Source: Ulva prolifera
Taxonomy: Eukaryota > Chlorophyta > Ulvophyceae > Ulvales > Ulvaceae
DNA: 64,000 nucleotides
Reading direction: 5' to 3'
NCBI GenBank assembly: GCA_023078555.1
Contig: CM041202.1
Span: 558,001 to 622,000, forward strand
In this document: in pieces, positions 22,349 to 61,138 of the stretch
Layout: every line of letters starts with the position of its first letter
Numbering within the stretch: the first letter of the stretch is position 1
Position numbers and translations under genes: made by a program
Notes under the pieces: generated by a model
What the model was told of the DNA's origin: nothing
What the model saw: the letters and a program-made list of their open reading frames with translations, nothing else
Databases searched by the model: none

Positions 22349-22696
22349 ACCGTAGCTGCACTGCGTTCCAGAAGTGGATTCCATCGGACAGGCCTGGACC
22401 TAGGCGCACTGGCGTTTAAAATTGCAGATTTCAATCGAAGTATCATAGCATTGCACCGTGGCCATCGTACTCCCGCGTGTGTTTGCGTATGCTAGCTACA
22501 GTTCCAATATCTGCGCTGCGGTGTATACAATTTGATACAATAAATTGGCAAGAGTACCCTGCTTGGTGGCACAATTTTGTGGCCGGCTAGGCCTAGGGCT
22601 GCAAATTACAGGTTAAGCCTGTTGAAAGCTTATTTTGGAGTTAACTAAGCCCTGTCAATTTACCCTTAATTGTGCTTTTGACGAAGAACTTGGATA
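22349..22696. other. AT-rich spacer after copy 3
   Basis: No gene seen. The segment TAGGGCTGCAAATTACAG...CCCTTAATTGTGC is more AT-rich than its surroundings and resembles, in reverse complement, the AT-rich stretch at about 42380-42550 (AGGGCTGCAAAATAAGGC, TTAAGGG). The two may be copies of one small non-autonomous element, but no terminal repeats were confirmed. Confidence 0.3.
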
Positions 22697-22707
22697 GTGT
22701 AATGTGT

Positions 22708-23777: not shown

Positions 23778-23899
23778 GTGTAATGTGTAACTTGCTTCAA
23801 GTTAAATGATGAACTTGTAACTTGAAAATCTGCTTTTCGGCCTGCTTAATTCAAACAACTTGGTGTGCTGCCCTCATGAGGCATGCATGGCTGCGCATG

Positions 23900-23917
23900 C
23901 ACTAGGAGAATGGTGAC
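23900..23917 (+). repeat. CACTA element left terminal inverted repeat
   Basis: CACTAGGAGAATGGTGAC, identical to the reverse complement of 41918-41935. It is preceded by ATG at 23897-23899. Confidence 0.93.
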
Positions 23918-24165
23918 ATTCCGGGGCGGAACCGAAGGCGTTCCGCTGACAGAGGAACGTTCCTACGAGGCTCTTGACCTTCCGCCCGCGTGCGTATGCT
24001 TCACAAGGAACGATGGTGGCGGAATGTCCTATGGCTTCCTCGGTGGCCGCGGAATGTCCGATGGCTTCCTTGGTGGCCGCGGAATGTCCTATGGCTTCCT
24101 TGGTTGCCGCGGAATGTCCTATGGCATCCTGGGCATAAGCGCTGACCGGAACGTACGCGTGTGCT
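23918..24165. repeat. CACTA left subterminal repeat region
   Basis: Dense in GGAACG, GTTCCG and GCGGAATG motifs in both orientations. From about 24018 to 24135 there are four imperfect tandem copies of a roughly 33-bp unit containing CGCGGAATGTCCTATGGCTT. In CACTA elements such subterminal repeats are the binding sites of the second element-encoded protein (TnpA in En/Spm); that role here is inferred. Confidence 0.75.
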
Positions 24166-24469
24166 CTTCCATAGCGCGAGACCAGGCCAGGCAGTCTCCG
24201 CAGATGAAGAACACTGGAAAGCCATTGCAAGCTGTTGCGAAAGCTACAGCGCACATGCAGGTCCGGCAGACCGAGCTTGGAAATGTGTTGACACATTATG
24301 TTGGAAAGGAGTGAGCACAGCAGGATTTAAATGCGACGCACATATGCGGCGAGGATTCGCCTTATAGGCTGGTCTGGTGCAACGCTGGATTGTCTGGGTA
24401 AGATATGGACCTCATTCGTAATTTGGATCTGGCCTGCTAATGGTCGGTGTGGCACCTTCCAGGGCAGCG

Positions 24470-24745
24470 CCCGTGTGCCCAGTCAGCACCTTCGTGGAAT
24501 GGTCGGTGCCTCACCAACCATTCTGTATGCGAGCAATGCATGTGCCCCTTCCAGTCCGCTCTGGGGCAGCGCCCGTGTGCCCAGTCAGCACCTTCGTGGA
24601 ATGGTCGGTGCCTCACCAACCATTCTGTATGCGAGCAATGCATGTGCCCCTTCCAGGGCAGCGCCCGTGTGCCCAGTCAGCACCTTCGTGGAATGGTCGG
24701 TGCCTCACCAACCATTCTGTATGCGAGCAATGCATGAGCCCGGCT
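24470..24745 (+). repeat. Promoter-proximal hairpin array of gene 25018-29002, three units
   Basis: Three tandem units, each with GTGCCCAGTCAGCACC, then a hairpin with arms GAATGGTCGGTG and CACCAACCATTC, then GCGAGCAATGCATGTGCCC. The first two are separated by a short extra segment (CTTCCAGTCCGCTCTGG). The unit is the same as that at 32605-32815 but in inverted orientation. The array ends about 275 bp before the start codon at 25018. Homology with the other array continues downstream (AGTGTC.ACAGGATGCCC), so a whole promoter module appears duplicated. Confidence 0.8.
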
Positions 24746-25017
24746 GCTGAAGTGTCGACAGGATGCCCACGAGCACCGAGTATCGACTTTGCTGAACTCT
24801 GGAGTGAGCGTGGTACCTTCCAAGTTTCCCAGAGCGCTGTGAGTCGCTTCAGACGAGGCAAGGTTGTTGTCGCGTGACCGCAGTCTCATCACGGCATTGA
24901 CATAGACTCAGAGTTGTGTATCTATCGCTGGTATCGTCCTGCCGTCTACTGCGGCCAGCTGATTGTGTGCTGCGTCCCGAAAGGTTTTTCAGATAATTTC
25001 GAAAAGTGTTGTAGAAG

Positions 25018-25801
25018 ATGTCTGTCGTGGGTGGTGAGGAAGCTGTAGCCTGTTGCCCTGGCGATGCCCAGCCTGACACAAGCGTTGCTGCGTTCACACC
25101 ACCCGCCTGTCTGCGGCCGGCGCTGTCTCCCGTGATTGGCACGCTGATATCTCGGTCAGGCCATTTTACGGACTTGGGGCGCGTCGGCCGTAAAGGACTG
25201 CCCGGCTCTGACAGCGCTTGCGACGCTTGGTTGAATGCCGGGCTACAGGCGGTGGGCCGTGTCTCGCAAACAGTAGAACAGGGCGTAGCATACGTGAAAT
25301 ATTCTGTAGTGCTCGCTTGTCTGCAACTCGGGGCGTGGATGCGCGAGCAGGAGGAGTTGTTGGTGCCAGCATGGGAGGGAATCTCAGCACCTCCACCTGG
25401 ATGTGACGCCCCTTGTGTGTTGGCGAAGTTGTACGGTCAGAAAAAGGTGTGCCCACCCCAGTCCCAGGAGCTCCGTTCTGTTTGGCCCCGACATTACACA
25501 CGGGAAATGCACTGTCGGCGCCCATGCCCATCCGCCACACCCCCGCCCTTGTCACACCCGCCCTTGTTGGTGAATTCGCCATCCCGAGTCCCCCCGGATC
25601 ATGTAGGTGCCTGTAACTGGGAATGTTCGCCAGCATGCCCCACCAGCGCCCGCTCGGGCGACTACCGAATCGGGTCACGCTGGGGCTGCTGGCTCCGAGA
25701 CTGTGCAACAGAGCGACAGGGCGGCGCGCGGGCTCCCGCAGTTGAAGAGCTCCAAGAAGCGGAAACAGCCCGATGCCCCCCCGAAGGAACACGGCAGTAT
25801 G

Positions 25802-25835
<34 letters not shown>

Positions 25836-28800
25836 TACGACACTTGTGTACTGTCGACAGTGCCTCCCTGTCGCCGTGTTTCCGACAGTTGCACGTGGTG
25901 TATCACGTTGTGTGAGCGGGGTGTGTTTTGTAGAGTACTACGTCGCCACTCCTCGGGCCATGTTGTGGGCCTGGTGCTTTTTCTTCAGTGGCCTCCCCCC
26001 AGACGCTCAGTGCATGGACGTGCCCAGCACCAAGCGTTCAGAGGCCGAGGAGGGGACGGGCGGTAAAAAGGGCAAAGCCAAACTCAAGGTGCCCGAGCCC
26101 ACCTGCAACGTGCCGGTGGGTTGTAACCCCCTGTGCTCGTTGTTTTTGTACGAGAAGACGAGGGCGGCACTTCTCTGCTCTGAAAGCGGGAGGTCTCCAA
26201 GCGATGAATTGGCAGTGCGGGTCTATCAGGAGACAGCTTGCCGATCCGTCCTGTCAGGGCACAAGGGTGAGGTGTCCAAAGCGGTGACAAACTTGGCCGC
26301 CGGTGGGGGTCTGCTTACCGACATCCACTTATTCTACCCTCATCTCATAGACGTACATGTGCGTTCCTCCTCTCTGGGCACCCTCTACAAACTTGCCTGG
26401 CGCATGTGACGTTGACCAGTAGCCTATCGCTGTTGTCCCCATTCCGGCCTTGCGTGTGTCCTTTTCGCCCAATCGGGGAATCAGGTCAGGGGTGCAGCGA
26501 TTTAGCAAACAGACCGTCTGCAGGACATTGACATCATCGGGGAGTTTGTTGCGGCCGTCTATAATCTGGCCCCTTTTGTTGTGGAGTACGCAGCGGCACA
26601 CCCTCTGCTGAATCCGAGGCTGGTGTGGCTCCTTCAAATACGAATCTCCCTGTAGCCACGACTACGGCGTGTGTTAGCTGCACATGTAGTCACTCAATCT
26701 AGGAGTTGTATACTCCTCTAGCATGCAGGAGTCTGATCAATCGAGGCTTTTTGCTGAATGCTTCGCAGATGTCACGACGTTCCACCAAGCCATGCTTAGT
26801 GCCTGCGTCGCGTACATGCCAGTACGTGGGTCTTCCTGCGGGTCGGGGCTGCAGCTTTGCTTCGCCGCCTACCAGGCTATGGTGTTTGGGTGGGCGCACG
26901 CAGACCCGGATGTCAAGCAGCGGGTCCCGGTGTGGGAATATGAACCCTATCGCGAGGCCGGGCCCTGCTTTTTGGATCCTCTCATGGCGGCCATACTGGT
27001 CACCGCTGTGAACACTTCCTGTGCGTCCCTAGACTGCCTCTGCCTGTTCCGAGGTGTTGCTGGTTCGGCTCCCTGGTTTGGTAGTGTACGCGATGCCTTT
27101 CCCCCGGTGGGCCTCTAAACGGTACCCCGCTTGCAGGGCTGTCACCCACCGGCGTCGGGAGCCCGGTGCACCGTTTCACCTCCCTCCTCATTGACGTCTG
27201 CCCGGGCGATACCATCTGGCATTGGGCATTGAGGGCATGGCGGTTCCTGTGCACCACCAGTGTCCCTGAGATTGAAGGTGCCGCAGATCAAGGGGGCGCA
27301 AAGAAGAAGAGTAAGTTGCTTGCCCTTGTCCCAGCGTCGTTCCAGGACATTGAGGACTGGGGGTACGACGCGGCGCAAATCCTGGCTACAAGGGCTATCG
27401 TCATGGGGATGCAGGTTCCAGAATGCGCCAGGTGTGTCATGCCGCTCATGTGTGTTTTCCTGGATGCCCTGCAGTGTCATAACAGCGTTCAACAGCCCGC
27501 GTGAGACACAGCTAGGGAGATGGTTTCAAACACACTCGCTGTTTGTACAGCGGCGAGCTTGGGCACCTCCCACATTGTGTACGCCAGCAGCTGCCCCCCG
27601 ATGCCCTGGGTGCACCGCTGGTGTCCACTGCGGAGGGGGGTGGGAATAGTTCCACCTGCACCACCGGCGGTGGAAAGGGATCTGGTAGCGACGTGGACAA
27701 GGGTGATGGGGACCTCGCCGGGCGCAGGGCGCAGCCCAAGCCACGGACTGGCGCGAGTGCGTCTGTCTGGGGCCTGCCAAAGGCCGCGGGTGGGGGGAGT
27801 GGTGGCAGTGGCCCCGCCGCTGCAGCCGCCGGCACTGACAACGCCGCAGCTGCGCTGTCGCAGCCGGCTCAGCAGGCAGCTGCTGCCGGGGGGGGCCTGC
27901 CGAAGGCCGCGGGTGGGGGGGGTGGTGGCAGTGGCCCTGCCGCTGCAGCCGCCGGCACTGACAACGCCGCAGCTGCGCTGTCGCAGCCGGCTCAGCAGGC
28001 AGCTGCTGCCGGGGGGGGCCTGCCGAAGCCCCTGGGTGGGGGGAGTGGTGGCAGTGGCCCCGCCGCTGCAGCCGCCGGCACTGACAACGCCGCAGCTGCG
28101 CTGTCGCAGCCGGCTCTGCAGGCAGCTGCTGCCGGGGGGGGCCTGCCGAAGGCCGCGGGTGGGGGGGGGGGGGGGGGGTGTCCGCAGATAGGCCAGGATC
28201 TGGCAGCAGCTCGGGGCCCAGGGATGATTGGGGCTGCGCGTCAGGGCCACCAACGGCCCTGAACGCATCATGGCCCGACGGAGGTACCCTTCTGGGTACT
28301 CTGGCCCGCGTGTCAGGCGTTGCCCCCCCCTCTTCGGATCCATCCTCTGGGGTCTTGCCGGGGGGGGGGGGGGGGGGGGGGGGCGGAGGGGGGGGCACCC
28401 CGAGCGTCGTGAGGTCCACCGCCTCACAGCCCCCAACGGTCGGGCCTCAGTATGTCCCCGTCGACCCCACGTCGGGACCAGACCGCCCTATGTGGGACCC
28501 AGCGACCTCGCTGGTGCCAGCCGGTCCTGGGACTCTTGTAGTATCCGTTAACAAGCAGGACCGTGGCCGCAAGACCGTCATAACCATAAATGACGATCCG
28601 CCTTCGTCCGGTCCATCCACCTGCGACAGGGAGACGAAGCTGCAGTGTGCCGCTGCCATGTGGGGGACAATGACGCGCTGCAACCCGCGTCTACAGTCAC
28701 CCGGGGATGACCAGAGGATCATGCTCATGGTGGTCCTTTCTGGCCATGGGCTGATTCCAGACGCCACCACCATGAACGAGGTCCTCTTGACGAGTCAGGA

Positions 28801-29002
28801 GGTGTGTCGCTGGTTGTATGAGTCCCCTGTCCACCTACGTCGTCCCTGTCCGGTCCACCGTATCTACGATCCCGAAGTGTGACCTCGTGCTGTGGCCTAA
28901 CTGGCGCCATGTTTGCAGTCTCCCCAAGACCCCATGAGTGAACTACGAGAGGCGCTGGGTAAACTGGAGGCGGATGACGGTGACATTGCCGGCGGGGAGT
29001 AG
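25018..29002 (+). CDS. Unrecognised multi-exon CACTA cargo gene
   Basis: Plus-strand gene at the left of the transposon. Well-supported exons are 25018-25446, one starting at 25607, one starting about 25989, one starting about 26524, one spanning about 26725-27118, one from about 27135, the repeat exon ending at 28876 and the last exon 28919-29002 (ending DGDIAGGE). Middle junctions are provisional. The product starts with MSVVGGEEAV, has basic segments (LKSSKKRKQP; KKGKAKLK), helical segments (LFAECFADVTTFHQAMLSAC) and a low-complexity Gly/Ala region with three 40-residue repeats. A 30-nt C run and 18- and 24-nt G runs lie in the coding sequence; the G18 run changes the reading frame. No family is recognised. 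It is not the transposase. Confidence 0.6.
27770..28160 (+). repeat. 120-bp coding tandem repeat
   Basis: Three full units and a partial fourth of about 120 bp, nearly identical, encoding LPKAAGGGSGGSGPAAAAAG followed by TDNAAAALSQPAQQAAAAGG. The near identity indicates recent expansion or homogenisation. The repeat also makes long open frames on the other strand, which are not genes. Confidence 0.85.
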
Positions 29003-29518
29003 GCTGCCTGTAGATTTGTAGGGAATTTGAAGGGGTTCATTGCAGTGGCGTGTGTGTGTTAGCGTGGGGGTGCGATGTGCCACAACACGGATCTGTAACC
29101 TGCAGTCCGTGTATACCTATGCAATTACTGGTGCGTATGGTCTCGAGCTGATACTTATGTTCGTGATGCCATTTCGCTGCAGCTGCACTGTACCTCGTTA
29201 TCTCGAGTACTGCAGCGCTGCGGGCTGCTGCCAGGGGGGCACAGTTGACACTGTTCTGAACACAATAGGTTCATAAGGCAAGACGCCGTAGTTAACCTAC
29301 GGATTTCGACTCAGTATCCCAATCGTTATCGCGTGTAAACATAACTATCCATCCTCAATGGCTTCAGTTCGCGTGCAACACATGTCTGCTATTAGTATTA
29401 CAATCATCAAACGACTCAACTTTGTCAGTCGTTTCTGCTAAAATAACATCCGCCTTGACAGCATCAGTCATCTACTGAGCAGCGCAGCTGCTGTACTCAA
29501 CATGCGCATATTCTGTAT

Positions 29519-32381
29519 TTATCGCCTAAGGCTTGGCAATGACATTTGGAATAGGGATTTATACTCGGCGTTCAGGGCTTCCGCCGGCTTCTGAACACTG
29601 GGGACAATTTCAGTCCACAATGTCGTCCTGAACCAGTGCCTGCAGACAGATGCTCCGGCGTCAGAAGACATGCCAACTATCGATGGTGCCTGGACATGGA
29701 CACGCGCAACGTACATGCATTGCACAGTGGTGGCAATTGGTGGCTGGAGCGGTACCGTAGTTCCTCTTCCGTGAGGTCCGGGCAGATAGGCTCCTTCAGG
29801 TTAAAATCCCACCTGGCATCAATTAAGATGCGTCGGGCCTCCTCTGAGCCTAGGCGACCAACGAAATCCCTTGCACGCCCCTTATTCTCCCATTCTTGTA
29901 GCAGTGTACGTGCCATGAGGACACGGTATATCACTACATGCTCCGCCTTCAACAGCTTCAGCCGGCTGACAGCCCCCCGTTCCACAGCGGACCCGTCGCT
30001 GGGGGACAATACCACCATGTTCTGGCGACCCTGGTCGCACTGTTTAATGGCGTCACCCACAGCCTCTGCCATCAGGCAGGTGTGGACCCCGCAGTCAAAG
30101 GTATTCCGCTGTTCAGGAACACCTTTCACCTGCACTCCCCGCCTTTGTTCAGAGGCCCCACTTGTGGCTGGCAGGACTCGTCCGCCACACTGTGATGCGG
30201 CGCAACTGACGGCTACAGCGATGTGACACACACAGATGAGACATACCACGCGTAACGTGAGGCGGTACTTCGGCTTCAACGGTGGCAGGGCACCTTGTTT
30301 GGCTCCGCGCTTCGGCTGGAATTTTTGTCGACCAGGTGTAGATAACTCCTGGGGCAGCTCAGTAAGGGGGGGTACCCCGGAAAGGCCCTGACACAGCGCC
30401 ACACTCATCACGTCTGTGATGGCAGTTGGTGCTGACGCCGACGCGTCGGCGAGGGAATCGAACCAGCTCATGGCCGGGCGCTTCCCGAGCAGCAAGAGCC
30501 CTGCATGTAGGGGTGGTTACATTGTAGACAGCGGCACTGTGTCATACGGCACAAATGGGGGGAGGGGGGGGAAATTGGGGGGTTTTTGGGGGGGTGTCCA
30601 CATGCACAGATACAAGTGCATACGATGGTACTGGAAGTCGCACTTGGGGAGTACACCACTGCAAGTGCCCAGTGCTTCCCGGTTGGCACCGGGATGAGGA
30701 TACACCTCGAGTTTAGTGCGTCCGCCCTCTGCAGCCACTTGGCGAGGTGCATCAGCATTCTACGGGCCTCAGGGTCGCTGCTAGGGTCACGGGTGACCAG
30801 TCCAGCGATGTGGTATGACGGGACCGCAATGACCCCCGGCCCGGCTAGGACAGCCGCCTTCACTACCGCATACTGCACCGGGGTGGAGCTGAACCACTCT
30901 GTCACCCAGAACTCCCGGAAGTGGTCGACAGCCACATCGACAGTCACTTTCGTGCTACCGAAATCTGCCAGGTGCACTTCAACACTCCTCCCTGAAGTGC
31001 TGCCTGAATAACTCTCTACGACTTCCGGGCCGATGTTCAGGCCGCGGAGGCGGTTCCCCGTGGGGGCCTCGTGCGACATTTCCGCGGCCAACCGCTTCAG
31101 CGGGCGGGCATCCGACCTCTCCGGAGCTCGGTTCAATGGCTGTCTCCCTCCCCCGCCCTCTGGTGGCAGCAAGCTCTTTGGGGACAAGAACCCCTGGCCC
31201 GAAACGGGTGGGCGAGCTGCGCCTTCCCCGCCGTCTGGGGTGTCCACCTCCATCGGCCCAGCGCCACTGGCTACCTGGCCCGAAGCGGGTGGGCGAGCTG
31301 CGCCTTCCCCACCGTCTGGGGTGTCCACCTCCATCGGCCCAGCGCCACTGGCTACCTGGCGCGGCGACGCCGGAGTGGGCCCAGGAGGGTCCTGGGCGGC
31401 CGCAGCCAGGACTGCGCCGCGGCTGAACCGCCTGGGCTGGGCTGGGTGCATCATTGCACGCCCAGCAGCAGCAGCCCCCTTTGCCTTGGGGACCGCGCAC
31501 TCCTGTCGATCCGGCAGAGCCGCTGCTGGTGTTGCCGCCACTGCACGTTCCGCTGCGTCCACTTCCCGGGGGCTGTCGGCGGCTGGTGCCAGGCGGGCCG
31601 CCACCGTGGTCCCGACTGCGCTCTGGCCGCAGGATTCTGCCCTCTCGGGGGGGCCAGGCTCGGGGGCCTGCGGTGACCCAGATGACATGACACCGCCATG
31701 CGGGGCCGATGGCTGGGCACCCTGGGGTTCGAGCTGCGGCGGCATTACTGGCGCCGTTAGGCGGGCCTCGAGGACCGCCGGTCTGGGCCACATCGGTGTG
31801 GCTTGTGGGGAGCTGGCCTGGAGCCTATCCCACCATGCTGCAATCGGCCGGCCACCGATGGTCATCCGGAGGCGAAGCAGAAGCCCTGCCATGGTCTCGT
31901 CGGGGCCTTGGGTCGTGGCGACGGACCTGTACACCGTGATGGCATGCACCCCGCACGGTGCTTCTGACTGGACGGCCCGCTGAAACGCGGCTTCTCGCAT
32001 CGCGACCCATAGCAGCTTTAAATGGTGCGTAGCAGCTCGGTATGGAGTACTTGCGCCCGCTACTTTGCGGGTTAGTACCCTTCCCATGGACGAGAAGCCT
32101 GCCAACATCCTGGACTCCGCCTTTTTATCGCCGGCAAGGATGGTATCTATCATAGCGACATCGTAAGCTGTCAGTACCCAGCCGGATTCCATCATGTCCA
32201 CCGGAAAGCCGTGTGGCCTGTCCATGACCAGCGACGGGATGCGGTTCCCAGGAACCCAGTTTCCCTGTGACGCTACCTCCACGAATCTATAAAAAGTAGG
32301 CTCATATTGAGCTCTACTATCTAATTCAGTGAGGTACGATTTCAGCGTTTGCACGGTGATCGTGGCAATGGACAACGACAT
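29519..32381 (-). CDS. Ulp1/C48-like cysteine protease carried by the CACTA element
   Basis: Four exons on the minus strand with agreeing phases: 32381-30644, 30500-30247, 30189-29711 and 29639-29519, giving about 863 residues. The N-terminal two thirds is not recognised and is Pro/Ala-rich, with an internal duplication of QVASGAGPMEVDTPDGGEGA. The C-terminal part shows the papain-like triad of SUMO/ubiquitin-like proteases in order: His in GKHWALAVVYS, Asp in SWFDSLAD after the first intron, then Gln and Cys in PEQRNTFDCGVHTCLM. It is likely to cleave ubiquitin-like conjugates or process a protein; the substrate is unknown. The start at 32381 was chosen because upstream in-frame sequence runs into the hairpin array. 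Ulp1-like genes are known passengers in some plant and animal DNA transposons. Confidence 0.8.
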
Positions 32382-32604
32382 CTGAATGAATCGCGGGCCA
32401 CGGGCTCGAACGACAATGGGAGCTAAGACTACACAAGCTGGAGCGAGACGCGTGGTGTACTGTAAAGGAGGTACATGGATACAGTGCGTGTGAGAAGCGT
32501 GTGTCCTTGAGAAGCCAGTCTGGCCTTGGCCAACTCCACATGACGTCACAGCATCGACGCTGTGCACGCGGGCATCCTGTAGACACTTGAGTAGTGCTGG
32601 GCAC

Positions 32605-32815
32605 ATGCATTGCTCGCATGCGGAATGGTTGGTGGGCCACCAACCATTCCACGGTGGCGCTGACTGGGCACATGCATTGCTCGCATGCGGAATGGTTGGT
32701 GGGCCACCAACCATTCCACGGTGGCGCTGACTGGGCACATGCATTGCTCGCATGCGGAATGGTTGGTGGGCCACCACCCATTCCACGGTGGCGCTGACTG
32801 GGCACATGCATACCG
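32605..32815 (-). repeat. Promoter-proximal hairpin array of the Ulp1-like gene
   Basis: Three tandem units of about 70 bp. On the minus strand each reads GTGCCCAGTCAGCGCCACC, hairpin arms GAATGGTTGGTG and CACCAACCATTC, then GCGAGCAATGCATGTGCCC. This matches the array at 24470-24745 unit for unit but inverted. It ends about 220 bp before the protease start codon and lies just 3' of the transposase stop at 32847. Confidence 0.8.
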
Positions 32816-32846
32816 CATGGTGGCCGCCATATGGGGGATGACCTAC

Positions 32847-35800
32847 TTACACAGTACGCCCGGAGGCCTTATTCGCTGTCTGCCAGTACTGAACACCTCC
32901 TGCCGTCCGTTTCACCGGAACCAGCTGCCCGGCCATAGCATCAATGTTCACTACATACCGGCCAGTGTAAGCTGAGGAACGGTGATGCACGCCATCAACC
33001 CTGTAAAACTCGGGAGCGCGGTTCAGCTCCTCATCCGCCTCCCTGCATCCGGGTGTATAGGGTGTACTACACTCGTACACGTCTGTCACACCGAGGTACA
33101 GTACGCTGGCCTCTACAGTGCAGGTTCTACAGATATTCGACCCGTCTGCCGTGCTGAGCCTGGCACGGACTATGTACTGCAAGTCGCCGACATAGTACCG
33201 ATCCTGGCCCCTATTCGTACCCTCTTCTACTACATGGTACTTCAGCAGGCACCATCGATTGTCTTTCTTACCCTGACCAGTGTGCTGCGCACAGGTCAGG
33301 ACATCCCCTACCAAAGCCCGCCCTCGCAGGAATTTTCGCAGGTGCACCTCACAGAGCTGCCGCTCAGCAACAACCTCCCCAGCAACCGGCAGCCCAAGCG
33401 CCCGCATGATGGCCTCTCTCCTGCCGTAGCCCGCACCCAAGACCCGCTGGGTCGGCCACCCTGCATCCTGCAGGGCGTCCTGGTGGTAGAGCAGGTAAGG
33501 CAGCCCGGACAACTCACCGACCCCAGTGTACCCCAGCGGCATCACTTCTTTCTTCTCTTCGGCGTCGAGGTCCTTACCCGCCCCAAACACCCTGTCGTCA
33601 TCACCGTCATCAGAGTCGGTGTCGCCCATGTGCACAGCGGCCCGGACCTTGCGCCGTTTTGACCGACGGCGTTTCTCTGAGGCCACGGCCTCTTGCAACG
33701 TGCGCATGGCCGCCTCTGCCGGCTCGCTGCTGTGAAGCAGCCTCAGGCATGTGCGCCGCAGCAGCTCATCGTTGACATACACTTTCTCTGGTGATTTGGT
33801 GGAACGATATTTGATCAGCCGTTTAAGTAGCTGCACCATGCGTTCGATCCAGAACTCTAGACAGAAGAACGCAGGCCCACAGCATCTCACCTGGTCCGGT
33901 AGGTGCCAGGCTGCAATATGAAGCTTGAAGGTGCAGATCACCTCCCCCCCAAAGAGATCTTCTGCCACCGCGCCGTACTTCATCAATGCGTCTTGAGCTG
34001 CTTTGATCCGGGGTGCGGTATGCTGGAGCTCCTCGTACCGCAGGAAGTACAGGGTGCCTGCCCGGAGGTGCGTCCACATCTCTTCGAACACCAGCCGAAC
34101 ATCCTCCTGGTCGGGCTCCCATTGGAGGTCGTGCAGCAAGTACAAGGAGAACGTCTCAGTGAACGCAAGCCAGTCCTCCATGAGCCACCGAGACCGGTGC
34201 CTGCAGCAGTGCAAACTTGAAGCGAGCCACCTGCTGGCCTCCACAAGATGTAAGGTTCACGACATTTGTGCATGGGACAGCTGCCAGCAGTAACCAGTGA
34301 CCGCTGCCGTATTGTGGGGGGCCGCGGAACCGCACTTGGTGATGTCGGTGTACACTTTCTTGAACAGATAAGTGTGCATGATGTGGGACGCGCGGGCAGC
34401 GATCTGGGCCACCACCTCTTTAGGCAGCTGATACAACCGACGGGGGCCTGCTGGGCGGGCTTTCTTACGCCGCTTTGAACTCGGCAGCCACTGATTCCAG
34501 AAGTCCATGAGGATGCCAAGGAGGAACACGTGCGCGACGCCGTAGCGGAAGAAGTGGCAGGGACTGCAAGAACAACATCCGTCACGGTGAATTCGTGGGT
34601 CCAGATGACGGTATGGCAGCTGTCATGAGGTAGGGGTGCGCACTTGAAGTATGAGAGGGTGCTGAACAGGGAGGACCCTTTCACCCCCAGGCGGATGTGC
34701 TCCTTCTTCGCAAGTTTCTGCCGTTCCAGCAGGGTGTCTTTGGCGGTGTAGCGGTCCAATGTGGGGCTGGTGGTCTGCATGCAAGCCACCTGGTGGGCGT
34801 GATGGCAGAACGTCGACCATGCATGCTGGCACATGGGCCGCAGGACAGAGGAAAGATACAAATACAAGGGTAGCCGCACCTGATCGATCAACAAGTCTGC
34901 TGTGTGGCCGCGAGCGCACATCTCTGAAGCAGAGTACTTCAGCCGGCAGTCCTTTGCCAGGGTCGCCGGGTCGATGGTGGTAACCTCGGACCACTTCGTG
35001 CGAGGGGGGGGGGGGCCCCGGGGTCTGGTTCCATACTGCCGGGCACCATCCTCGGCACCGCCCCCGCGGCAATCTCCGTCTCTTGCGCCGCTGTGAGGGG
35101 CTTTCCTTGATCAGGCCCCGCAGCGTGAACCGGCTGAGGCTGGATGACCGGGCCGTGGAACCCAAGCCAGCTGCACGGCGGATGTCTGATAAGGACAGTA
35201 GTGAGCCCCCCAGCCATGTCGGAGGGGGTGGCGGAGGCGGGCTTGGCAGGGATGCCAGGGGGAAGCAGGGGTGGTCAGAGGCAGCATGGCGACGGCACGG
35301 CAACTGGAGCCAACATACCGAACTGTGTTGGCTGCGAACACCCAGACGCCGTTCTGGGCGCAACGGAAGCACGCCCTCTTGCCGCCGTGCCCGATGCTGT
35401 TGGTCAACTTCTGCATCCACGGAATGTCGCCCTCCACACAGCAGAGCACAGGCCAGATGCGCAGAACTGTTCCGTCAGGCATCTCGACTTTGAGAGCCTC
35501 GACCCCGTCCTCCCCCTTCCTGGCTGCATTGTAGGGGGCTTATAGTGAACACAGCGCACATTAAGCACTGGCCGGACATGAGTGTGCGGTGGGTACACAC
35601 TCGCCAGACTGACACGTACCTGGGTCATGCTTCTTGAAGAACTCGAGGACCTGTGCAAGGATGCTGTCCATGTTCGTGGGTTCAGTTGGGCCCTCCACTA
35701 CCCCCAGGGGGATCCAGGCCTCATTGCAATGAGACAGATGAGGGGGGAGGTCCAGCAGGCGGATGCCCCAGATTGTGGTCCCGTGTTGCTTGTTCACGTA

Positions 35801-37214
35801 CAGTTGGGCGCCGTCACCCCCTGCAAGCGGACTTGGTGTCGGGGAGAGGCTGCTGCAGGCCCCACTGGACCCAGACGATATTGATGGCCTGGCAACTGAG
35901 TGACGGGGACCCAGGATACGCCGAACTCAAGTCGAGCGCACCCAAGCTGAAAAGCAGTGCAATTTCGTCCGGGTCAGCCTTGGCGAAAATCCCGCCGCAT
36001 GCGGCGTTCAGGGCACGTCCGGCAGGGGACTGCCAGAAACCGGCGGGATCCATTAGGGCATGCACTCGATGAGCACGAACCGCGGCCAGGACGCCAGGTT
36101 GCAGAATCAGGTCTTTCAGCGATGCGGCCTCCCCAAAGTAGAAGACACTCCGGCAAGGTGCACCCTTGCCTGCCAGGTCCACCTCGAAACGCTTCTGGGT
36201 GCACCCTGGGGTGTTGCAGACGTCGTCCAAGTGGTGGGTATGATCACACGGCTTTATACCTGGGAAGAGAGTCCAGCACTGTGGGCACACGTGCCGGGTC
36301 ACTGAAGAGACATCTGGTACAGCCAGGACAGCCTTGACCAGGTGGAAGGATGGGGGGAACATATTCCCATCTGGTAAGAGTAGGTAATGCACAAAACGAC
36401 ACCACATGTCCACCACAACATCACTCATCCGGAACATGCTCTTCAGGCTGGCGATCCACATTGATACAGTCAACACTGTGAGACGGCAGGTGTCGGAGAC
36501 CGGATCCATCCGTCTCTGACGCCACCATGCGGCAGTCCCCTTCACGGCTGCAGCCTCAGCTGCGACCTGTGCACCCTCGCGGCCATCGAGGGAGTCGCTC
36601 TGCACATATTCACCAGCCATTTACACCGACAGGGAGCAGGGGGTGGGTGCCCAGCACAAGAGCAAATCGGATAATCTGGCTGCATCGGGAGACACCGAAA
36701 GGACAAACCTCAGTAGAGTCTGTGTCCCAGTCATCTCCTGACAGGCTGGAGAAGACACTGCTGGCGTCGTCGTATAGGCTGTCCACATCGTCGTCTCCGT
36801 AGTCTTCTTCGGATACGTCGGAGCCCTCAGGGACCTGGCCACATGACACCAATCACGATCACCAGATAGTCAGCACTCGAGAGCAGACGAGGTGATCAGG
36901 GACAGGCGCACCTCGAAGAGGACCTCGTCGACTCGACCGAGGTCGACAACGCCGGGAGGCTGGTTGCCCGCCACTGGCTGGTTGCCTGTGTCATCTCCCG
37001 TGCCCTCGTCACGAGTCTGAGCGCGCCTCGCGGGGCAGGCGCGGGGGTGGTTCTGGGCAGTCAGAAGCCTGTCAAACGGTTTACTACATTTTATGCACTT
37101 GTATAGTAACTTTTTGTCCCCATCATGAAGTGGAGGATCAAGGCGCAGCACGCCAACGAGTGCAAGGTCGTCGTCGACATCACGCTTGGCGGTGCGAGGC
37201 CTACGCGGAGCCAT
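32847..37214 (-). CDS. Tnp2-like CACTA transposase
   Basis: Eight exons on the minus strand: 37214-36912, 36834-36709, 36599-35942, 35820-35620, 35523-35319, 35170-34644, 34563-34336, 34200-32847; about 1,200 residues. Residues 40-60 form a C2HC finger (YKCIKC...H...C). Then come an acidic exon, a Cys-rich segment (VCPQCWTLFPG), the likely first catalytic Asp in GDGAQLYVNKQ, the RNase H-like strand IRLLDLPPHL, and the likely second Asp in VEGDIPWMQ followed by HGGKRACFRCA, typical of Tnp2 (Pfam Transposase_21). Later segments are VFLLGILMDFWNQWL and HIAAWHLPDQVRCCGPAFFC. All junction phases agree except in exon 6, where the frame shifts by one base in a run of 12 G (35004-35015). That is either a real mutation or a homopolymer error. 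Confidence 0.85.
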
Positions 37215-37342
37215 TATCTACACATTAAACGTCGATGAACTCTGCCTGGATGAATGGAAAGACGTCGCCGTAAGCGAGCGGCGTGGTACGAACGAGGCTC
37301 ATGCGTAGTGAAAGCGTCCTCGGGGACGAGTGGAGTGGCGGG

Positions 37343-37470
37343 ACGCTTACAAAAGAGTGAACAAGAGATATCAAACACTGAAACCGAATCTCATCCGAAT
37401 CAATTGCAACATAAACTCACACACACACGAACACGATAACCGCACTCACCACTCAGTCAGGCAGGATCGC
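37343..37470 (-). mobile_element. 128-bp family B LINE fragment inside the CACTA element
   Basis: Flanked by a perfect 13-bp target duplication GTGGAGTGGCGGG (37330-37342 and 37471-37483). On the minus strand it ends GTTCACTCTTTTGTAA plus a four-base tail, the family B 3' end, and contains the same GGATGAGATTCGGTTTCAGT stretch as other copies. It lies between the divergent 5' ends of the transposase gene and the gene at 37687, so it may have altered their shared promoter region. Confidence 0.85.
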
Positions 37471-37686
37471 GTGGAGTGGCGGGGGATCCTCGTGCGGTGG
37501 GGATGTAACGAAGGAGTGTCCCTGTGGCCAATGGCCGGGCACCAACACGGGCCTGTGTTTTCAAAATCTTGGATACCAGCATTGACGGATAGGCCTTCCC
37601 AAGTACCAAAGACGTTGGAGTTACTGTAAACGCATCGGCTGCGGAGTGTCTGTCGAGTTCCGGTCCTCTCTAGTGTGTACGTCGCG

Positions 37687-38620
37687 ATGCCGGACAACCT
37701 TGAGTTTCAGTTCAAGCGAGCAGCCGCGATCTTGATAGACAAAGACACTGCGGACGACGATTCGGATAATGGGATGCTGGATGTGCTAGCGAGGAGTGTC
37801 TGGCGAAGGGGAGGGGGGTCGGACGGCATGACACTGGCGTCGGCCAACGACGAGGAGGCCACCTTGGACGTCGACAACGTGGAGTCCCTCAAGAGATGTA
37901 TAACTTTCTACTTCAAGAAGGGGAGGATCGCCGGCGGCATCGAGCCCCCGGTGCTGGTGCTGCCCATCAATCCACGGAAGAATCGAGGCTCCGCTCCAGG
38001 TGCGTCGGCACACACAGCGGCCTCCACTGCTACCGCTGCGACGGGCGACAGCGATCAAGTGTGGGAGGTACTACAGTCGGGAGTGCTGCTGTGGACTGAC
38101 AAGTTGTCGGCGATCCTGGGCCAGATGAGGGACGAGGACAAGGCGTCCCCGCTCATGAAGGCGATGCTGAAGGACGACGGCGACCCAAAGCTGCGAATGT
38201 ACGAAGGTTGTATGCTGATGCATCAGCACGTTGGCGCGATCGCTGCGGCAGCAGCTGGGGTACGCTTTTGCAAGCCTGCTAACAAAATGAACCTGTTTCG
38301 CCGGGCTGAGTTGCTGGGGCGGTTGCCATACGGTAATGTGAAGATTACGGTAGATTGCGATGAACTCGTGTTGTCATGTATGGCTGAGCATGTAGAGTGA
38401 TTGACCCAGTTGTTGTTTTCGTGCTGGAAGTGGTCGCCGCGGACCGTGCGCCGCGGGAGGCAATGTCCACCGCAGTACATCGATGATGACCAGAATTGAT
38501 TGACTTGTGCAGCCGGGCAAAGAGGGGACGGCGTACACGGCTGCGAGGAACATAGCAAAAGCGTTTCGGGGCCAGACAAGCATGATGAGGGAACTGAAGT
38601 ACAAGTGCGTTCCCTCTTGA
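37687..38620 (+). CDS. Unrecognised small CACTA gene divergent to the transposase
   Basis: Two exons, 37687-38259 and 38513-38620, phase 0, giving 226 residues; read without splicing it would stop at 38400. The product is mixed acidic (MPDNLEFQFKRAAAILIDKD) and helical, with an Ala-rich stretch at the junction and a basic C-terminal helix (AARNIAKAFRGQTSMMRELK). The donor AAG-rich region near 38605 also contains a plausible GTGCGT donor, so this may be the 5' part of one gene with 39825-40993, the satellite lying in the intron, but the phases tried did not agree. No family is recognised. An En/Spm TnpA-like DNA-binding role is possible from position only. Confidence 0.55.
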
Positions 38621-38874
38621 GCATGCGACATCACGATCTTGACAGGATGCTCACGTTCGGCCATAATCAGCGGCCCTCCTGTGTTCGTGTAAGCACACAC
38701 GCCCAGTCCTGACCAAGCCGACTCCTGCAGCGGTTTCGCTAAACGAGCATTTGATCACAACAAAAAGATGCGGCAGAGCGAGCGAGCCCGCGAGGACCCG
38801 AAAGTGACCTCGGCAGTGACGGGCGTAGAAGAGGAACGGGCGCGTGCTCCCTTCTCCCGGATCATGACATGCAT

Positions 38875-39775
38875 GACTTGCCCGAATGGTCGGTGGGCCA
38901 CCAACCATTCGGGGCGCGTGGATAGTGACATGACATGCATGACTTGCCCGAATGGTCGGTGGCCCACCAACCATTCGGGGCGCGTGGATAGTGACATGAC
39001 ATGCATGACTTGCCCGAATGGTCGGTGGGCCACCAACCATTCGGGGCGCCTGGATCGTGACATGACATGCATGACTTGCCCGAATGGTCGGTGGCCCACC
39101 AACCATTCGGGGCGCGTTGATAGTGACACGACATGCATGACTTGCCCGAATGGTCGGTGGGCCACCAACCATTCGGGGCGCGTTGATAGTGACATGACAT
39201 GCATGACTTGCCCGAATGGTCGGTGGGCCACCAACCATTCGGGGCGCCTGGATCGTGACATGACATGCATGACTTGCCCGAATGGTCGGTGGGCCACCAA
39301 CCATTCGGGGCGCCTGGATCGTGACATGACATGCATGACTTGCCCGAATGGTCGGTGGCCCACCAACCATTCGGGGCGCGTTGATAGTGACACGACATGC
39401 ATGACTTGCCCGAATGGTCGGTGGGCCACCAACCATTCGGGGCGCGTTGATAGTGACATGACATGCATGACTTGCCCGAATGGTCGGTGGGCCACCAACC
39501 ATTCGGGGCGCGTGGATGGAGACATGACATGCATGACTTGCCCGAATGGTCGGTGGGCCACCAACCATTCGGGGCGCCTGGATAGTGACATGACATGCAT
39601 GACTTGCCCGAATGGTCGGTGGGCCACCGACCATTCGGGGCGCCTGGATGGTGACATGACATGCATGACTTGCCCGAATGGTCGGTGGGCCACCAACCAT
39701 TCGGGGCGCGTGGATAGTGACATGACATGCATGCCTGCCCGAATGGTTGGTGGCCCGCCGACCATTCGGGCTGAC
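38875..39775 (+). repeat. 14-copy, 66-bp hairpin satellite in the CACTA element
   Basis: Fourteen near-identical units spaced 66 bp (the last 65). Each has CATGACTTGCC, a long hairpin with arms CCCGAATGGTCGGTGG and CCACCAACCATTCGGG, then a short variable linker GCGCGTGGATAGTGACATGA. Units differ mainly by one base at the hairpin centre (GGGCC or GGCCC) and a few linker bases. The hairpin core is the same as in the arrays at 24470 and 32605. The long open frames across it on both strands are by-products of the 66-bp period. It is not a CRISPR array: the linkers are repeats too. Confidence 0.9.
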
Positions 39776-39824
39776 ATGCATGTCACTCGTGCGCTCGTGC
39801 GCCGCGCCTAACTGACCGCTGCAG

Positions 39825-40993
39825 ACCCATCTGATGTGGACGTTGTGCTACTGCGAACACATTAAGCAACCGCATACTAGTGCGCGTGACAAGCGCAAGC
39901 CACTGACACATCACCTATCCATGCAGCTGTCCAGAATCGGAACCAGGCTTGCTTACGGCGATGGCACGATGAAGTCAGCCGCGCAGTGGGCACGAGAAGA
40001 AGGAGTGTACGTGGCTGACAACCACTACTTCAGGGATTTCATACAGGGCAATCTAAAAAGGGAACAGACAGCGGAATCTCCGTTGCGTCCCACCCACCGG
40101 AAGAGCCAGAAGGGTGGCCGGGTACGTGTTCGCGGCCATGCTGTACATGAGGCAGGGACATGAATGCGATGCCAGTCGTAGAAGTCGCGCCGACACAGAA
40201 TCGCGACGTGCCTTGCTACGCAGGCCGAGACCAGCAACGGCGGGAGACGCGCCCGCAAGAGAGGCAGCGACAGGTCAATCGCCGATCTCCCTCCTTCACC
40301 TCCGATCCTTACCCGAACACGGAAGGATTCGACTCCCACTGACAGTGACGACCAAGCCTTTGAGGAGTTACCCCACACAATGGAAGTTGCGGACGACGAG
40401 ATGCCCCAGGCCAAGGCTCGGAGAAGCGACGCAGCAGACATGGACATACAGGAGGATGAACCGGTGCGCCTCTATTTTTACATATCTCCATATGGTTGAC
40501 ATAAACTGTGCTTGGATAAGTCCAAGCTCGTGTACGCGCGTTCGTGATGATGTAGTGAGCTTGATGAGGCGCATCAATGGTATGTATCGTATACATGCTG
40601 GTCATGTTTCAGTAGGTGCGAGAGATCTTGTGACAGCAACGTTGTTCTGCAGAAGGCCAAGAAGAAGGACACGCATCCGGCTCTGGAGAAACGACAGGCA
40701 GACGCCGACCTCGAGTCTCTCCGGAATGCATGCAAGGTTCTCAATCAGAGAATAGCCGAGTCTCAGGATGAATTAGCGAAGCTGGCATCCGGCCCCGCCC
40801 GCACCCGGAAGGGTCCGCAGGCAAAGAAGCTCGATGATTCCATTAAACAGGACCAGGTGTGCCACAGCGAATCTCAACGAGTTGGACCGACGACCTATGC
40901 ATGCAATATGTGTGTACTGGTTTGATACAGCGGCGGGGCGTGCAGGAGGAGGTCCGGGCCCTTCAGCAGACCTTGATTGAGATGCTGTCGTGA
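39825..40993 (+). CDS. Basic and coiled-coil CACTA protein, candidate TnpA-like factor
   Basis: Four phase-0 exons: 39825-40121, 40182-40463, 40653-40856, 40931-40993 (about 215 codons in total). First exon: THLMWTLCYCEHIKQPHTSA... with a helical region SAAQWAREEGVYVADNHYFR. Second exon: basic patch NGGRRARKRGSDRS then acidic FEELPHTMEVADDEMPQ. Third and fourth exons form a predicted coiled coil (DADLESLRNACKVLNQRIAE; VQEEVRALQQTLIEMLS). An acceptor-like CAG directly precedes 39825, so an upstream exon probably exists; the first in-frame ATG is 39834. No family is recognised. Basic region plus coiled coil in the gene partnering a Tnp2 transposase suggests a subterminal-repeat-binding protein; this is inference. 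Confidence 0.65.
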
Positions 40994-41418
40994 GTGAGGT
41001 GAAGACTGAGGTTAAAGATGACCCCGAAGATGTCTGTCGATTAGTTGTACACCAACGAGGGCTCAGAAGAAACTGTCGCTGAGCACGGGCGGGCGTGACT
41101 GAGTGTATGAGTGGGGTATATGACATGTTAGAGGTGGCATTATCTGGTATTGTAGTAATGTCGGTCCGTACTGACAGGCAGAGGTCACAAGGTGACGATA
41201 TCTCAATGTAAGCGATGTCTCTGATAGTCTATGATTGCCTATGCAAGCCAGGACCGCCTGCCTATAAATTCGTATGAACACATCAACAAAGCTGTCTTGT
41301 TTCGGAACCACGGTGTACATGCTGCTTGGATCTGCACGCAAAACTGCCTTTCTCGCCGGACCGTATGTCATGTGTGCACCAATCGCGATTCTCGTCGAAA
41401 GCGTGGTACACCTGTTAC

Positions 41419-41475
41419 AATAGAGTGAAAGGGAGAGAACAAACACCGATACCGAGTCTCAGCCGAATCAACGTA
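41419..41475 (-). mobile_element. Degenerate family B LINE 3' fragment
   Basis: Reverse complement of the family B 3' end with several substitutions (GTTACAATAGAGTGAAAGGG, AACAAACACCGATACCGAGT, CAGCCGAATCAACG). No target duplication was resolved. Confidence 0.55.
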
Positions 41476-41574
41476 CACGTGGCACACATGTAAAGGAGGC
41501 CTCGCTAACCTCACCACGTACGTAATCTGCCTCCGGCACGATCGGTCAGAGAGTAACCAAGTAATAACCCCTCA

Positions 41575-41917
41575 TGAACCAGCATGTTCGTCCAGGCTTC
41601 CGTACGGCTTCCGCAAGGCTGCCGGAACGTTCCCGGATCCGTCATCGTTCCGAAATTTTAAGCATTCTTCCTCAAACAGTCCTCTGGATGCATTGCGGAT
41701 CCTTCGCGCGTTCCGGCACCACTCCGAAAACGTTCCGGCGGTACACCCACGTGGAGTGCACTTGCAAACCACCCGGTCGGAACGCTCGCGGAACTTCCTC
41801 CCACACTCCGGGCTGCCTTCCGGACGCTCCGCCAACAGTCCTTTCGCCGTTCCGGGGGGCTCCGCCACGCCTCCGCCCCTCTTCCGCGAGCCGTCCTCGC
41901 ACCTTCCTCACCACCAC
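41575..41917. repeat. CACTA right subterminal repeat region
   Basis: About 340 bp rich in TTCCGG, GTTCCG, GGAACG and CTTCCG motifs in both orientations, the same core motif as the left subterminal region. Open frames crossing it have no support. Confidence 0.75.
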
Positions 41918-41935
41918 GTCACCATTCTCCTAGTG
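41918..41935 (-). repeat. CACTA element right terminal inverted repeat
   Basis: GTCACCATTCTCCTAGTG, the exact reverse complement of 23900-23917. It is followed by the target duplication ATG at 41936-41938. Confidence 0.93.
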
Positions 41936-43329
41936 ATGTATGCCTCGTGAATGCACATCGATGAACACGATTGCTTGATGCAGCATGGATACATGAATTT
42001 GTGTGTTCAGAGTGGCAAACAGATTTAGGCTGTCTGTGTCACTTCTTTGTCTTACTACCTCCGAGACTCTGCCAGGTGAATATTGTGCAGGACTATGGAA
42101 TGCATGCAATTGAGTTGCAGTGCAGCATTGCTGCGCAGCGCTGTGTGTTGTGATGCAACTGCTGTTCACAGGCCTGTCTTCGATTACCCATCTAGGCAAG
42201 CATAACGTATGGATGTGGTATTTAAGTTGCGTGCACTATCAGAAAACTGCATTGGAGATGAGCTGCACTGTTATGATCAGCATACTCTTGACAGCCTTGG
42301 CTACCGTTGCAGGGTAGCCAAGGCTGCAAGTAGACACACGTGTGTATATATGTACGTGTTCCGCAAGTCAAAATAAATCTGAAAAAAATGCCTTAATTCG
42401 ATGCCACGAACACAAGTTAAGGCACTTCAAAAACCCTTAATTTGACGATTTTGCACTCGAGTAAGTTGCACGATTTTTTTTCCCCTTAATTATGTGTTCT
42501 TAATTAACCCTTAATTGCAGCTTCGGGTGCCTTATTTTGCAGCCCTAGCTAGGCCAGCAGCACAGCCATGGTGGTCGCGAAGCTGTGCTAGATGTGTCCG
42601 AGTCCATCCCCGGTGGGCAGTGGGCATGCAGCACCGCTGGAAGACGGGGTACGCTGTGCCGGCGACAGCTTCAAGGATGCTCTAGTACTGCTGCCACAGC
42701 CACTGCCAGTGATCAGTGCATGCTCTCCACATGCTGCTTCCATCACAGCATGTCCTGCATGAGTGCATCTGCGATGTGCCGATATCGATACGTACATGTC
42801 ACCACCGCGCCCCAGCATTAATTATAAACTGCTGCCATAATTCTTGTCAAAGTTGTGAGCCTAGCAACTGGTCAGACATCGATGCTTAGATGTACACACA
42901 AGCGCGCCAGAAACCCACCAGAAGCCCCGCACATCCTCCGGAAGCTCAGCATCTTCCTAAATCCTGTGCTGGGCATGCTGTGGCGTATTCTGCCGCAGTG
43001 TACAACGGCGTCTGTCTCCCGCGGTGGGTGCCATTGGATGATGAACGCCGGGAACACATCTGCATATGACGTCGCCTCACTGGCGGCTGTGGAGCTTCCG
43101 CATATATATAACCATGTGCCCGTGATGTTATAACCATGTGCCCGTGATGGATGCTGAGCCGGCGTGAGCCGCATAAGGCATCACAATACCAGCGAGGGTG
43201 CGTGGCGTGGGTTTGAGCGTGTGTGTGCGCCTGCACGCAGAACAGCGGCCCCGTGTGTATTTTTGTCGCGGGCTGAGAAGGGGGGTGTATCTGGCGGTGC
43301 TGTGCTACTCCTGAGCGTTGAGCGTACGG
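41936..43329. other. Spacer right of the CACTA element
   Basis: No intact gene. It holds a perfect hairpin at 42292-42326 (14-bp arms CAGCCTTGGCTACC and GGTAGCCAAGGCTG, 7-bp loop), an AT-rich stretch at 42380-42550 and a decayed kinase exon at 42915-43020. Confidence 0.5.
42915..43020 (+). pseudogene. Relic of a receptor-like kinase last exon
   Basis: Reads APHILRKLSIFLNPVLGMLW, against APDTLRKLGVFRKPVLGMLR in the last exon of kinase copy 1 (about 3362-3421), and nucleotide similarity continues over GTGCTGGGCATGCTG. The following RRDPAQRAT motif is lost. It is the remains of another copy-1-type gene at the right flank of the CACTA insertion. Confidence 0.65.

Positions 43330-54556: not shown

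Positions 54557-61138
<6,582 letters not shown>

What the first reader, a model, noticed from the sequence alone, without database searches (positions are those of the whole stretch)
23900..41935. An intact-ended 18-kb CACTA transposon carrying at least five genes
Perfect 18-bp terminal inverted repeats starting CACTA, an ATG duplication on both sides and matching subterminal motifs fix the limits exactly. It is large for the superfamily and combines a Tnp2-like transposase, a Ulp1-like protease, a multi-exon gene of unknown family and two more small genes. The surrounding host array shows no similar genes, so the cargo belongs to the element.
Basis: partly seen in the sequence, partly recalled or inferred. 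Interest (0 to 1): 0.9.

Follow-up and report, generated by a model that had tools for sequence, protein, structure and literature searches.

The report
Large modular CACTA transposon, high copy
This is one of dozens of copies of a large jumping-gene family that carries four genes of its own, and in this genome a two-gene cassette inside it is found in swapped and flipped forms.

Summary
Window 23900-41935 is an 18,036-bp element with perfect 18-bp CACTA inverted repeats and an ATG duplication. The exact 18-mer occurs 120 times in the 89-Mb genome. Of 13 copies read end to end, 12 have 3-bp duplications. All 4 fetched empty copies of the target repeat carry one ATG.

My models give four genes, not five: a divergent CACTA-type transposase, gene R beside it, gene L of unknown family, and a Ulp1-type protease. 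Pfam's Tnp2 model does not detect the transposase. The window copy's transposase and L frames break at homopolymer runs.

Beyond the finding: (1) L and Ulp1 form a cassette between inverted palindrome arrays. A second cassette lineage occurs in both orientations: 9 of 10 loci reversed, 1 forward, mostly 89-93% identical DNA. (2) Left and right halves reassort: all four combinations occur among 8 long copies. (3) All 19 strong palindromes in the element are one 27-bp motif whose half-site repeats part of the terminal repeat; one base changes in step in a sister family, but a third family lacks this.

Ulp1-bearing CACTAs and 16-20 kb multi-ORF CACTAs are in print. New variant of a known kind; how the cassette flips is inferred.

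The parts
23897..23899 (.). target-site duplication ATG, left copy
   Evidence: single ATG in 4 of 4 fetched empty sites
23900..23917 (+). left terminal inverted repeat CACTAGGAGAATGGTGAC
   Evidence: perfect 18 of 18 with the right end; 120 exact occurrences in the genome, control 0
23919..24152 (+). left subterminal region rich in CGGAA/TTCCG, with a 30-bp tandem repeat at 24019-24130
   Evidence: 9 motifs in the left 300 bp, interior mean 0.55 per 300 bp; tandem repeat
24452..24741 (+). palindrome array A, three 27-bp palindromes at 24497, 24599, 24691; left border of the cassette
   Evidence: inverted copy of array B
25018..29002 (+). gene L, model of 8 exons (25018-25446, 25607-25796, 25934-26358, 26524-26622, 26729-27020, 27137-27431, 27551-28801, 28919-29002); unknown family; frame off in exon 7 in this copy
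   Evidence: exon model from comparison of two cassette lineages; dN/dS 0.38 over exons 1-6; no Pfam match for exons 1 to early 7
29715..32381 (-). Ulp1-type cysteine protease gene, exons 30644-32381, 30247-30500, 29715-30129; 3' end uncertain
   Evidence: Pfam Peptidase_C48 E 1.3e-7; dN/dS 0.37 against the second lineage
32597..32811 (-). palindrome array B, three palindromes at 32623, 32690, 32757; right border of the cassette
32847..37214 (-). transposase gene, model of 9 exons; frame off in exon 34880-35170 in this copy
   Evidence: open spliced product of 1168 aa in copy C6:5.70; conserved GDG, GDIP and CxxC core in three families
37687..40993 (+). gene R, divergent from the transposase; exons 37687-38259, 38513-38604, one from about 38731, 39927-40121, 40224-40463, 40653-40856, 40946-40993; end of the third exon uncertain
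   Evidence: dN/dS 0.28 (exon 1) and 0.42 (C-terminal exons); same order in family II
38863..39770 (+). palindrome array C, 66-bp period, 13 palindromes, between exons of R in this model
   Evidence: a different palindrome array at the matching place in family II
41609..41886 (+). right subterminal region rich in CGGAA/TTCCG
   Evidence: 10 motifs in the right 336 bp
41918..41935 (-). right terminal inverted repeat
41936..41938 (.). target-site duplication ATG, right copy

Best explanation
The element is an 18-kb copy of a multi-copy, recently mobile CACTA/EnSpm-type DNA transposon family. Shown: exact ends, 3-bp target duplications, empty sites, dozens of near-identical copies. Shown by sequence: four genes under purifying selection. 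Inferred: it moves by cut and paste, the transposase acting on the 18-bp ends and the CGGAA-rich subterminal regions, with R as its accessory partner. L and Ulp1 form a cassette between inverted palindrome arrays A and B. Shown: two cassette lineages exist, one of them in both orientations, and left and right halves occur in all four combinations. Inferred: homologous recombination between the inverted arrays, and between copies at shared stretches, flips and swaps these blocks. Also inferred: the 27-bp palindromes are binding sites for an element-encoded protein that also contacts the terminal repeat.
For: Ends and duplications: 13 of 13 and 12 of 13; 120 exact ends, control 0; 37 pairs among 100 listed ends; 22 of 30 flank matches span the junction and 4 of 4 fetched sites have one ATG. 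Copies 93-99% identical to the window over most of their length. Coding: dN/dS 0.28-0.42 for R, L, Ulp1 and transposase exons 1-5; transposase last exon pN/pS 0.20. Cassette: in C6:5.70 and C7:6.25 the right part is 98% and 96% like the window, while L and Ulp1 are reversed and 60% and 57% identical as protein; of 30 loci, lineage 1 forward 13, lineage 2 reversed 9, lineage 2 forward 1, none found 7; the one forward lineage-2 cassette matches C6:5.70 in reverse, mostly 89-93%, pieces 87-96%. Both ends keep the same side relative to the transposase, so only the cassette is turned. Reassortment among 8 long copies: 1a five, 1b one, 2a one, 2b one. Palindromes: 19 of 19 in the window element are one motif, 0-5 (mean 1.5) in 20 random resamples; between arrays the 27-bp core is 78-96% alike and the 30-bp sides mostly 17-40%; the half-site GAATGGT is in the terminal repeat, and family II has GAATGGC in both.
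Against: No transcripts, so exon models and R as one gene are unproven. Pfam Transposase_21 is not matched. Only one forward lineage-2 cassette was found, and only its 7.1-kb cassette part was read; it has an extra 1.1 kb and one 289-bp piece lies at a displaced place. The terminal-repeat/palindrome link rests on two related families and one changed base; in the parts of family III that I read there is no such array. Most side comparisons between arrays were in one orientation only, and A and B are inverted copies of each other. The window copy itself has two broken frames.
Confidence: 0.8

Rival explanations
1. The palindrome arrays are targets of an element-encoded anti-silencing protein (L or R), working like VANC proteins of Arabidopsis VANDAL elements, rather than synapsis sites for transposition.
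For: VANC targets often form tandem repeats that differ between related TEs (PMC5735166, abstract); some VANC genes carry a Ulp1 domain (PMC13317346, passages). Here arrays sit in non-coding DNA, differ between families and accompany a Ulp1 gene.
Against: No sequence relation of L or R to any known family was found. The half-site also lies in the terminal repeat, which fits a role in transposition as well. Copies of 6-11 kb without predicted genes keep arrays near both ends.
Confidence: 0.25
2. The cassette is turned by a dedicated site-specific recombination system rather than by ordinary homologous recombination.
For: A and B are inverted repeats at the borders, and both orientations of one lineage exist.
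Against: No recombinase gene was found in the four genes, and the two orientations are 87-96% rather than fully identical, so turning is not frequent.
Confidence: 0.06
3. The arrays are ordinary minisatellites with no function, and the cassettes differ because of old captures and chance recombination.
For: Arrays vary in number and period between copies; family III has other repeats at another place.
Against: Only the 27-bp palindrome is kept between arrays with otherwise different sides; family II has a different palindrome of equal length at the matching place.
Confidence: 0.3
4. The cargo is passively captured host sequence, as in Pack-CACTA elements.
For: Gene capture by CACTA elements is known (PMC13317346, passages).
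Against: R and Ulp1 accompany transposases of both family I and family II, and dN/dS is below 0.5.
Confidence: 0.05

Closest known systems
CACTA/EnSpm superfamily (En/Spm, Tam1; soybean Tgmt*, 20.5 kb)
   Same: CACTA ends, 3-bp duplications, subterminal repeats, a transposase and a candidate accessory gene; soybean Tgmt* has subterminal motifs able to form 14 stem-loops (PMC2613891, passages)
   Different: Transposase not detected by the Tnp2 model; a four-gene layout; palindromes in three arrays, one of them in the middle of the element; an inverted cassette
CACTA-ULP elements of grapevine and rice (Cactavine families)
   Same: A Ulp1 protease domain inside CACTA elements, common in plants (PMC2528002, passages)
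   Different: Here the protease gene is paired with L in a cassette that also occurs reversed; direct and reverse Ulp orientation is reported there for MULEs (same passages)
Giant En/Spm families of the red alga Chondrus crispus (16-20 kb, 4-5 ORFs)
   Same: Size and number of genes (cited in PMC6431247, passage; the original Repbase report by Kojima et al. 2013 was not seen)
   Different: Gene families could not be compared
VANDAL elements with VANC and KIU (Ulp1) genes, Arabidopsis
   Same: Tandem arrays of a motif in non-coding DNA that differ between related families; Ulp1 domain (PMC5735166 abstract; PMC13317346 passages)
   Different: A different transposon superfamily; no relation of the proteins shown

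Membership tests
CACTA/EnSpm superfamily | terminal inverted repeats starting CACTA | tested here: met
   perfect 18 bp, 13 of 13 copies
CACTA/EnSpm superfamily | 3-bp target-site duplication | tested here: met
   12 of 13 copies; 4 of 4 fetched empty sites with one ATG
CACTA/EnSpm superfamily | repeated subterminal motifs at both ends | tested here: met
   CGGAA/TTCCG 9 left and 10 right against mean 0.55, maximum 3 inside
[quoted passage not shown]
   Among three families GDG, GDIP and CxxC are invariant; the next invariant histidine pair (H479, H487 of the aligned piece) has seven residues between; the final E was not identified
Tnp2 (Pfam Transposase_21) subgroup | match to PF02992 over the cut-off | tested here: not met
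   no match in the 1168-aa product nor at these loci in the genome scan; one unrelated sub-threshold hit elsewhere; the 14 control genomes also gave none
Tnp2 (Pfam Transposase_21) subgroup | DUF4218 (PF13960) C-terminal domain | tested here: inconclusive
   sub-threshold at the same place in three relatives: 16.1, 16.0 and 12.9 bits, cut-off 27
Ulp1 (C48) peptidases | match to PF02902 over the cut-off | tested here: met
   32.2 bits, cut-off 20.7, E 1.3e-7; motifs GKHW, WFDSL, QRNTFDCG visible in the translation (catalytic assignment recalled)
TNPA-like accessory protein of CACTA elements | binds the element's repeated motif | not testable with these tools
   R has no significant Pfam match and no usable model, mean pLDDT 33.6
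VANC-type anti-silencing system | element protein binds tandem motif arrays and removes methylation | not testable with these tools
   arrays present; binding and methylation data absent

The most novel reading that the evidence does not exclude
A eukaryotic DNA transposon with an internal switch: a protease-bearing two-gene cassette between inverted arrays of the element's own protein-binding palindrome that flips and is exchanged between copies, so that the element reassorts its accessory or anti-silencing functions while its transposase and ends stay the same.
Probability: 0.15. Interest if true: 0.8.

Novelty: new variant of a known kind. Interest (0 to 1): 0.5.

Why it matters
If the cassette really flips and is exchanged, a DNA transposon keeps its mobility part constant while reassorting accessory genes, a modular logic familiar from phages. 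The co-changing terminal repeat and palindrome give a direct handle on which element protein binds what. With dozens of near-identical copies and paralogous empty sites in one genome, insertion age, recombination breakpoints and non-autonomous derivatives can be studied at once. It also adds a case to the recurring and unexplained association of Ulp1 proteases with transposons.

Tried and rejected
Nothing conclusive came from these. An AlphaFold2 model of R exon 1 with 12 sequences has mean pLDDT 33.6, so no fold search was made. Homologue searches gave only P0001 for the transposase (72% over 42% of the part searched), P0002 and P0003 for L, and again P0001 with a three-family profile; each scored only about 8,000 candidates. 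PF02992 in the own genome gave one unrelated sub-threshold hit. The NCBIfam scan failed on a frame error and was not repeated. My first gene-finder runs merged neighbouring genes and were not used as they stood. One dN/dS value (transposase last exon, 7.4) came from the wrong frame; one search gives pN/pS 0.20 in the open frame. Family III was tried as a third test of the palindrome link: its right terminal repeat was found, but no matching array in the parts read, and other repeats instead. The host species was not identified; calling it an alga is a guess.

Considered and rejected: a chance inverted repeat (control 0); cargo from the surrounding host array; separate elements nested side by side (ends pair at full length, and the single-ATG empty sites).

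Literature searches. Searches returned no paper. In these nine searches I saw no report of an inverted cassette in a CACTA element; the library holds open-licence papers only.
Full report
The claim checked. The window is G000:C7:558001-622000 of an unnamed 88.9-Mb eukaryotic genome. The two 18-bp repeats, the ATG duplication and the CGGAA-rich subterminal regions are all there. The exact 18-mer occurs 120 times, 61 forward and 59 reverse, control 0. The listing gave 100 of the 120 ends; I paired 74 of them into 37 inward-facing pairs between 6,027 and 37,069 bp long, 26 stayed unpaired. From the pairs seen I read 12 other copies whole: 13 of 13 with the window have the perfect repeats and 12 of 13 have 3-bp duplications. 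The exception, C6:1.18, also joins a lineage-1 left half to a b-type right half, so it may be a product of recombination between two elements; that is inference.

Empty sites. The window's flanks, joined with one ATG, gave 30 matches, 22 of them running across the junction at 74-90% identity. The element sits in a dispersed repeat. The four sites fetched all read through with a single ATG. An 11-bp stretch in the window's left flank is missing from those four and is unexplained.

Genes. Comparison of copies gives four genes. The transposase runs leftwards (32847-37214); R runs rightwards from the shared upstream region (37687-40993); L (25018-29002, rightwards) and Ulp1 (29715-32381, leftwards) converge. 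The Ulp1 product matches Peptidase_C48 at E 1.3e-7; L and R have no significant Pfam match. dN/dS: R exon 1 0.28, R C-terminal exons 0.42 and transposase exons 1-5 0.31 (window against C6:1.18); L exons 1-6 0.38 and Ulp1 0.37 (lineage 1 against 2); transposase last exon pN/pS 0.20. All are below 1. In the window copy the transposase and L lose frame at homopolymer runs that differ in length between copies, so this copy, as assembled, is probably not self-sufficient; whether that is biology or assembly is open.

What kind of transposase. PF02992 (Tnp2) is not matched, and DUF4218 is only sub-threshold, at the same place in three relatives. Three families in this genome share a core with GDG, GDIP and CxxC. 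The transposase N-terminal exon finds 136 places: 30 at 82-100%, 56 at 61-72%, 31 at 36-40% and 19 others, mostly fragments. The ends and duplications place the element in CACTA/EnSpm; its Tnp2 subgroup membership is not shown.

The cassette. In C6:5.70 and C7:6.25 the transposase half and the left 201 bp match the window at about 95-98% (the right part of C7:6.25 beyond 37468 lower, 82-86%), but the block with L and Ulp1 is reversed, and L and Ulp1 proteins are 60% and 57% identical to the window's. Across 30 loci: lineage 1 forward 13, lineage 2 reversed 9, lineage 2 forward 1, L not found 7. The forward lineage-2 locus (C2:3.72; ends at 3718496 and 3736605) matches the C6:5.70 cassette in reverse: pieces of 2,681, 2,484, 532, 292 and 289 bp at 87-96%. 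It also has about 1.1 kb extra, and its 289-bp piece is displaced. Ulp1 in the family II copy at C9:83.8 kb lies on the same strand as its transposase, as in the window, so forward is probably the older state (inference). The borders are array A (24452-24741) and array B (32597-32811), inverted copies of one another, 86-89% complementary over 74-77 bp.

Reassortment. The right part (from about 37468) has two forms, a (about 98-99%) and b (82-86%). Among 8 long copies: 1a five (window, C7:1.71, C2:7.38, C1:11.48, C2:7.62), 1b one (C6:1.18), 2a one (C6:5.70), 2b one (C7:6.25). All four combinations exist, so blocks have been exchanged.

The palindromes. With a stem of at least 11, at most one mismatch and a short loop, the window element has 19 palindromes and all 19 are one 27-bp motif, GAATGGTYGGTGSSYCACCRACCATTC, in arrays A, B and C. 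Twenty random resamples gave 0-5, mean 1.5; the 46 kb of flanks have 9 unrelated ones. The 19 fall into 3 tandem arrays, so they are not 19 independent events. The motif occurs 721 times forward and 683 reverse in the genome, control 0, many sites counted on both strands. Of the 100 listed places, 7 (C1:979078-980251) lie outside any listed end pair. Between arrays the core is 78-96% alike and the sides mostly unrelated. Short copies of 6-11 kb, in which my gene finder predicted nothing in the two tested (C9:1.78, C1:12.33), keep an A-type and a C-type array (4 of 4 short copies examined).

Co-change. The family I terminal repeat contains GAATGGT, the palindrome half-site. Family II has the repeat CACTAGAAGAATGGCGACAC (49 exact places; only the right end was read) and its own 27-bp palindrome GAGTGGCCATTCGCCGAATGGCCACTC at the matching place in R: GAATGGC in both. 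The base T to C changes in step. The weak R match downstream of the family II array has E 0.05. Against this, family III has the repeat CACTACAAGGATGGTGGGTAG and no such array in the stretches read, but other palindrome-bearing repeats of 241-344 bp. I rate the link suggestive.

How it probably works. Cut and paste at the 18-bp ends (inferred from duplications and empty sites). R is always next to the transposase (30 of 30 loci, one of them 10 kb away) and is the best candidate for an accessory protein, working like TNPA, though no relation to TNPA was shown. The arrays are most simply its or the transposase's binding sites; an anti-silencing role like VANC is the main rival. The cassette is turned and exchanged by recombination between arrays and between copies.

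Known and new. Ulp1 in CACTA elements is known from grapevine and rice (PMC2528002, passages). CACTA families of 16-20 kb with 4-5 ORFs are cited for Chondrus (PMC6431247, passage; original not seen). A 20.5-kb soybean CACTA has stem-loop subterminal motifs (PMC2613891, passages). The inverted and reassorting cassette and the array/terminal-repeat co-change I did not see in my nine searches.

Noticed in passing
window 1-23000 and 46500-52300: Flanking host genes form an array of similar genes whose predicted proteins end in a protein-kinase-like part after a membrane-spanning stretch (my reading of the translations; not scanned for domains).
   Followed up: no
window about 55600-60600 and 22600-23800: A predicted protein that looks like a reverse transcriptase of a non-LTR retroelement, and a fragment with a similar tail just left of the transposon (reading).
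   Followed up: no
window 54911-55350 and 60753-61137: Two long perfect AC repeats, 220 and 192.5 copies.
   Followed up: no
window 23868-23890: An 11-bp stretch in the left flank is absent from the 4 fetched empty copies of the target repeat.
   Followed up: no
G000 C6:1184628-1203903 (L019, L020): Copy with unlike 3-bp flanks (cct/atg) and a chimaeric left/right type, perhaps recombination between two elements.
   Followed up: partly
L041 and L042 (C9:3358000-3376000): Family III: a distant transposase (about 39-47% in its core) with terminal repeat CACTACAAGGATGGTGGGTAG and 241/344-bp tandem repeats beside it.
   Followed up: partly
G000 C1:979078-980251: Seven palindromes of the family I motif outside any listed pair of ends; perhaps a degraded or different element.
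   Followed up: no
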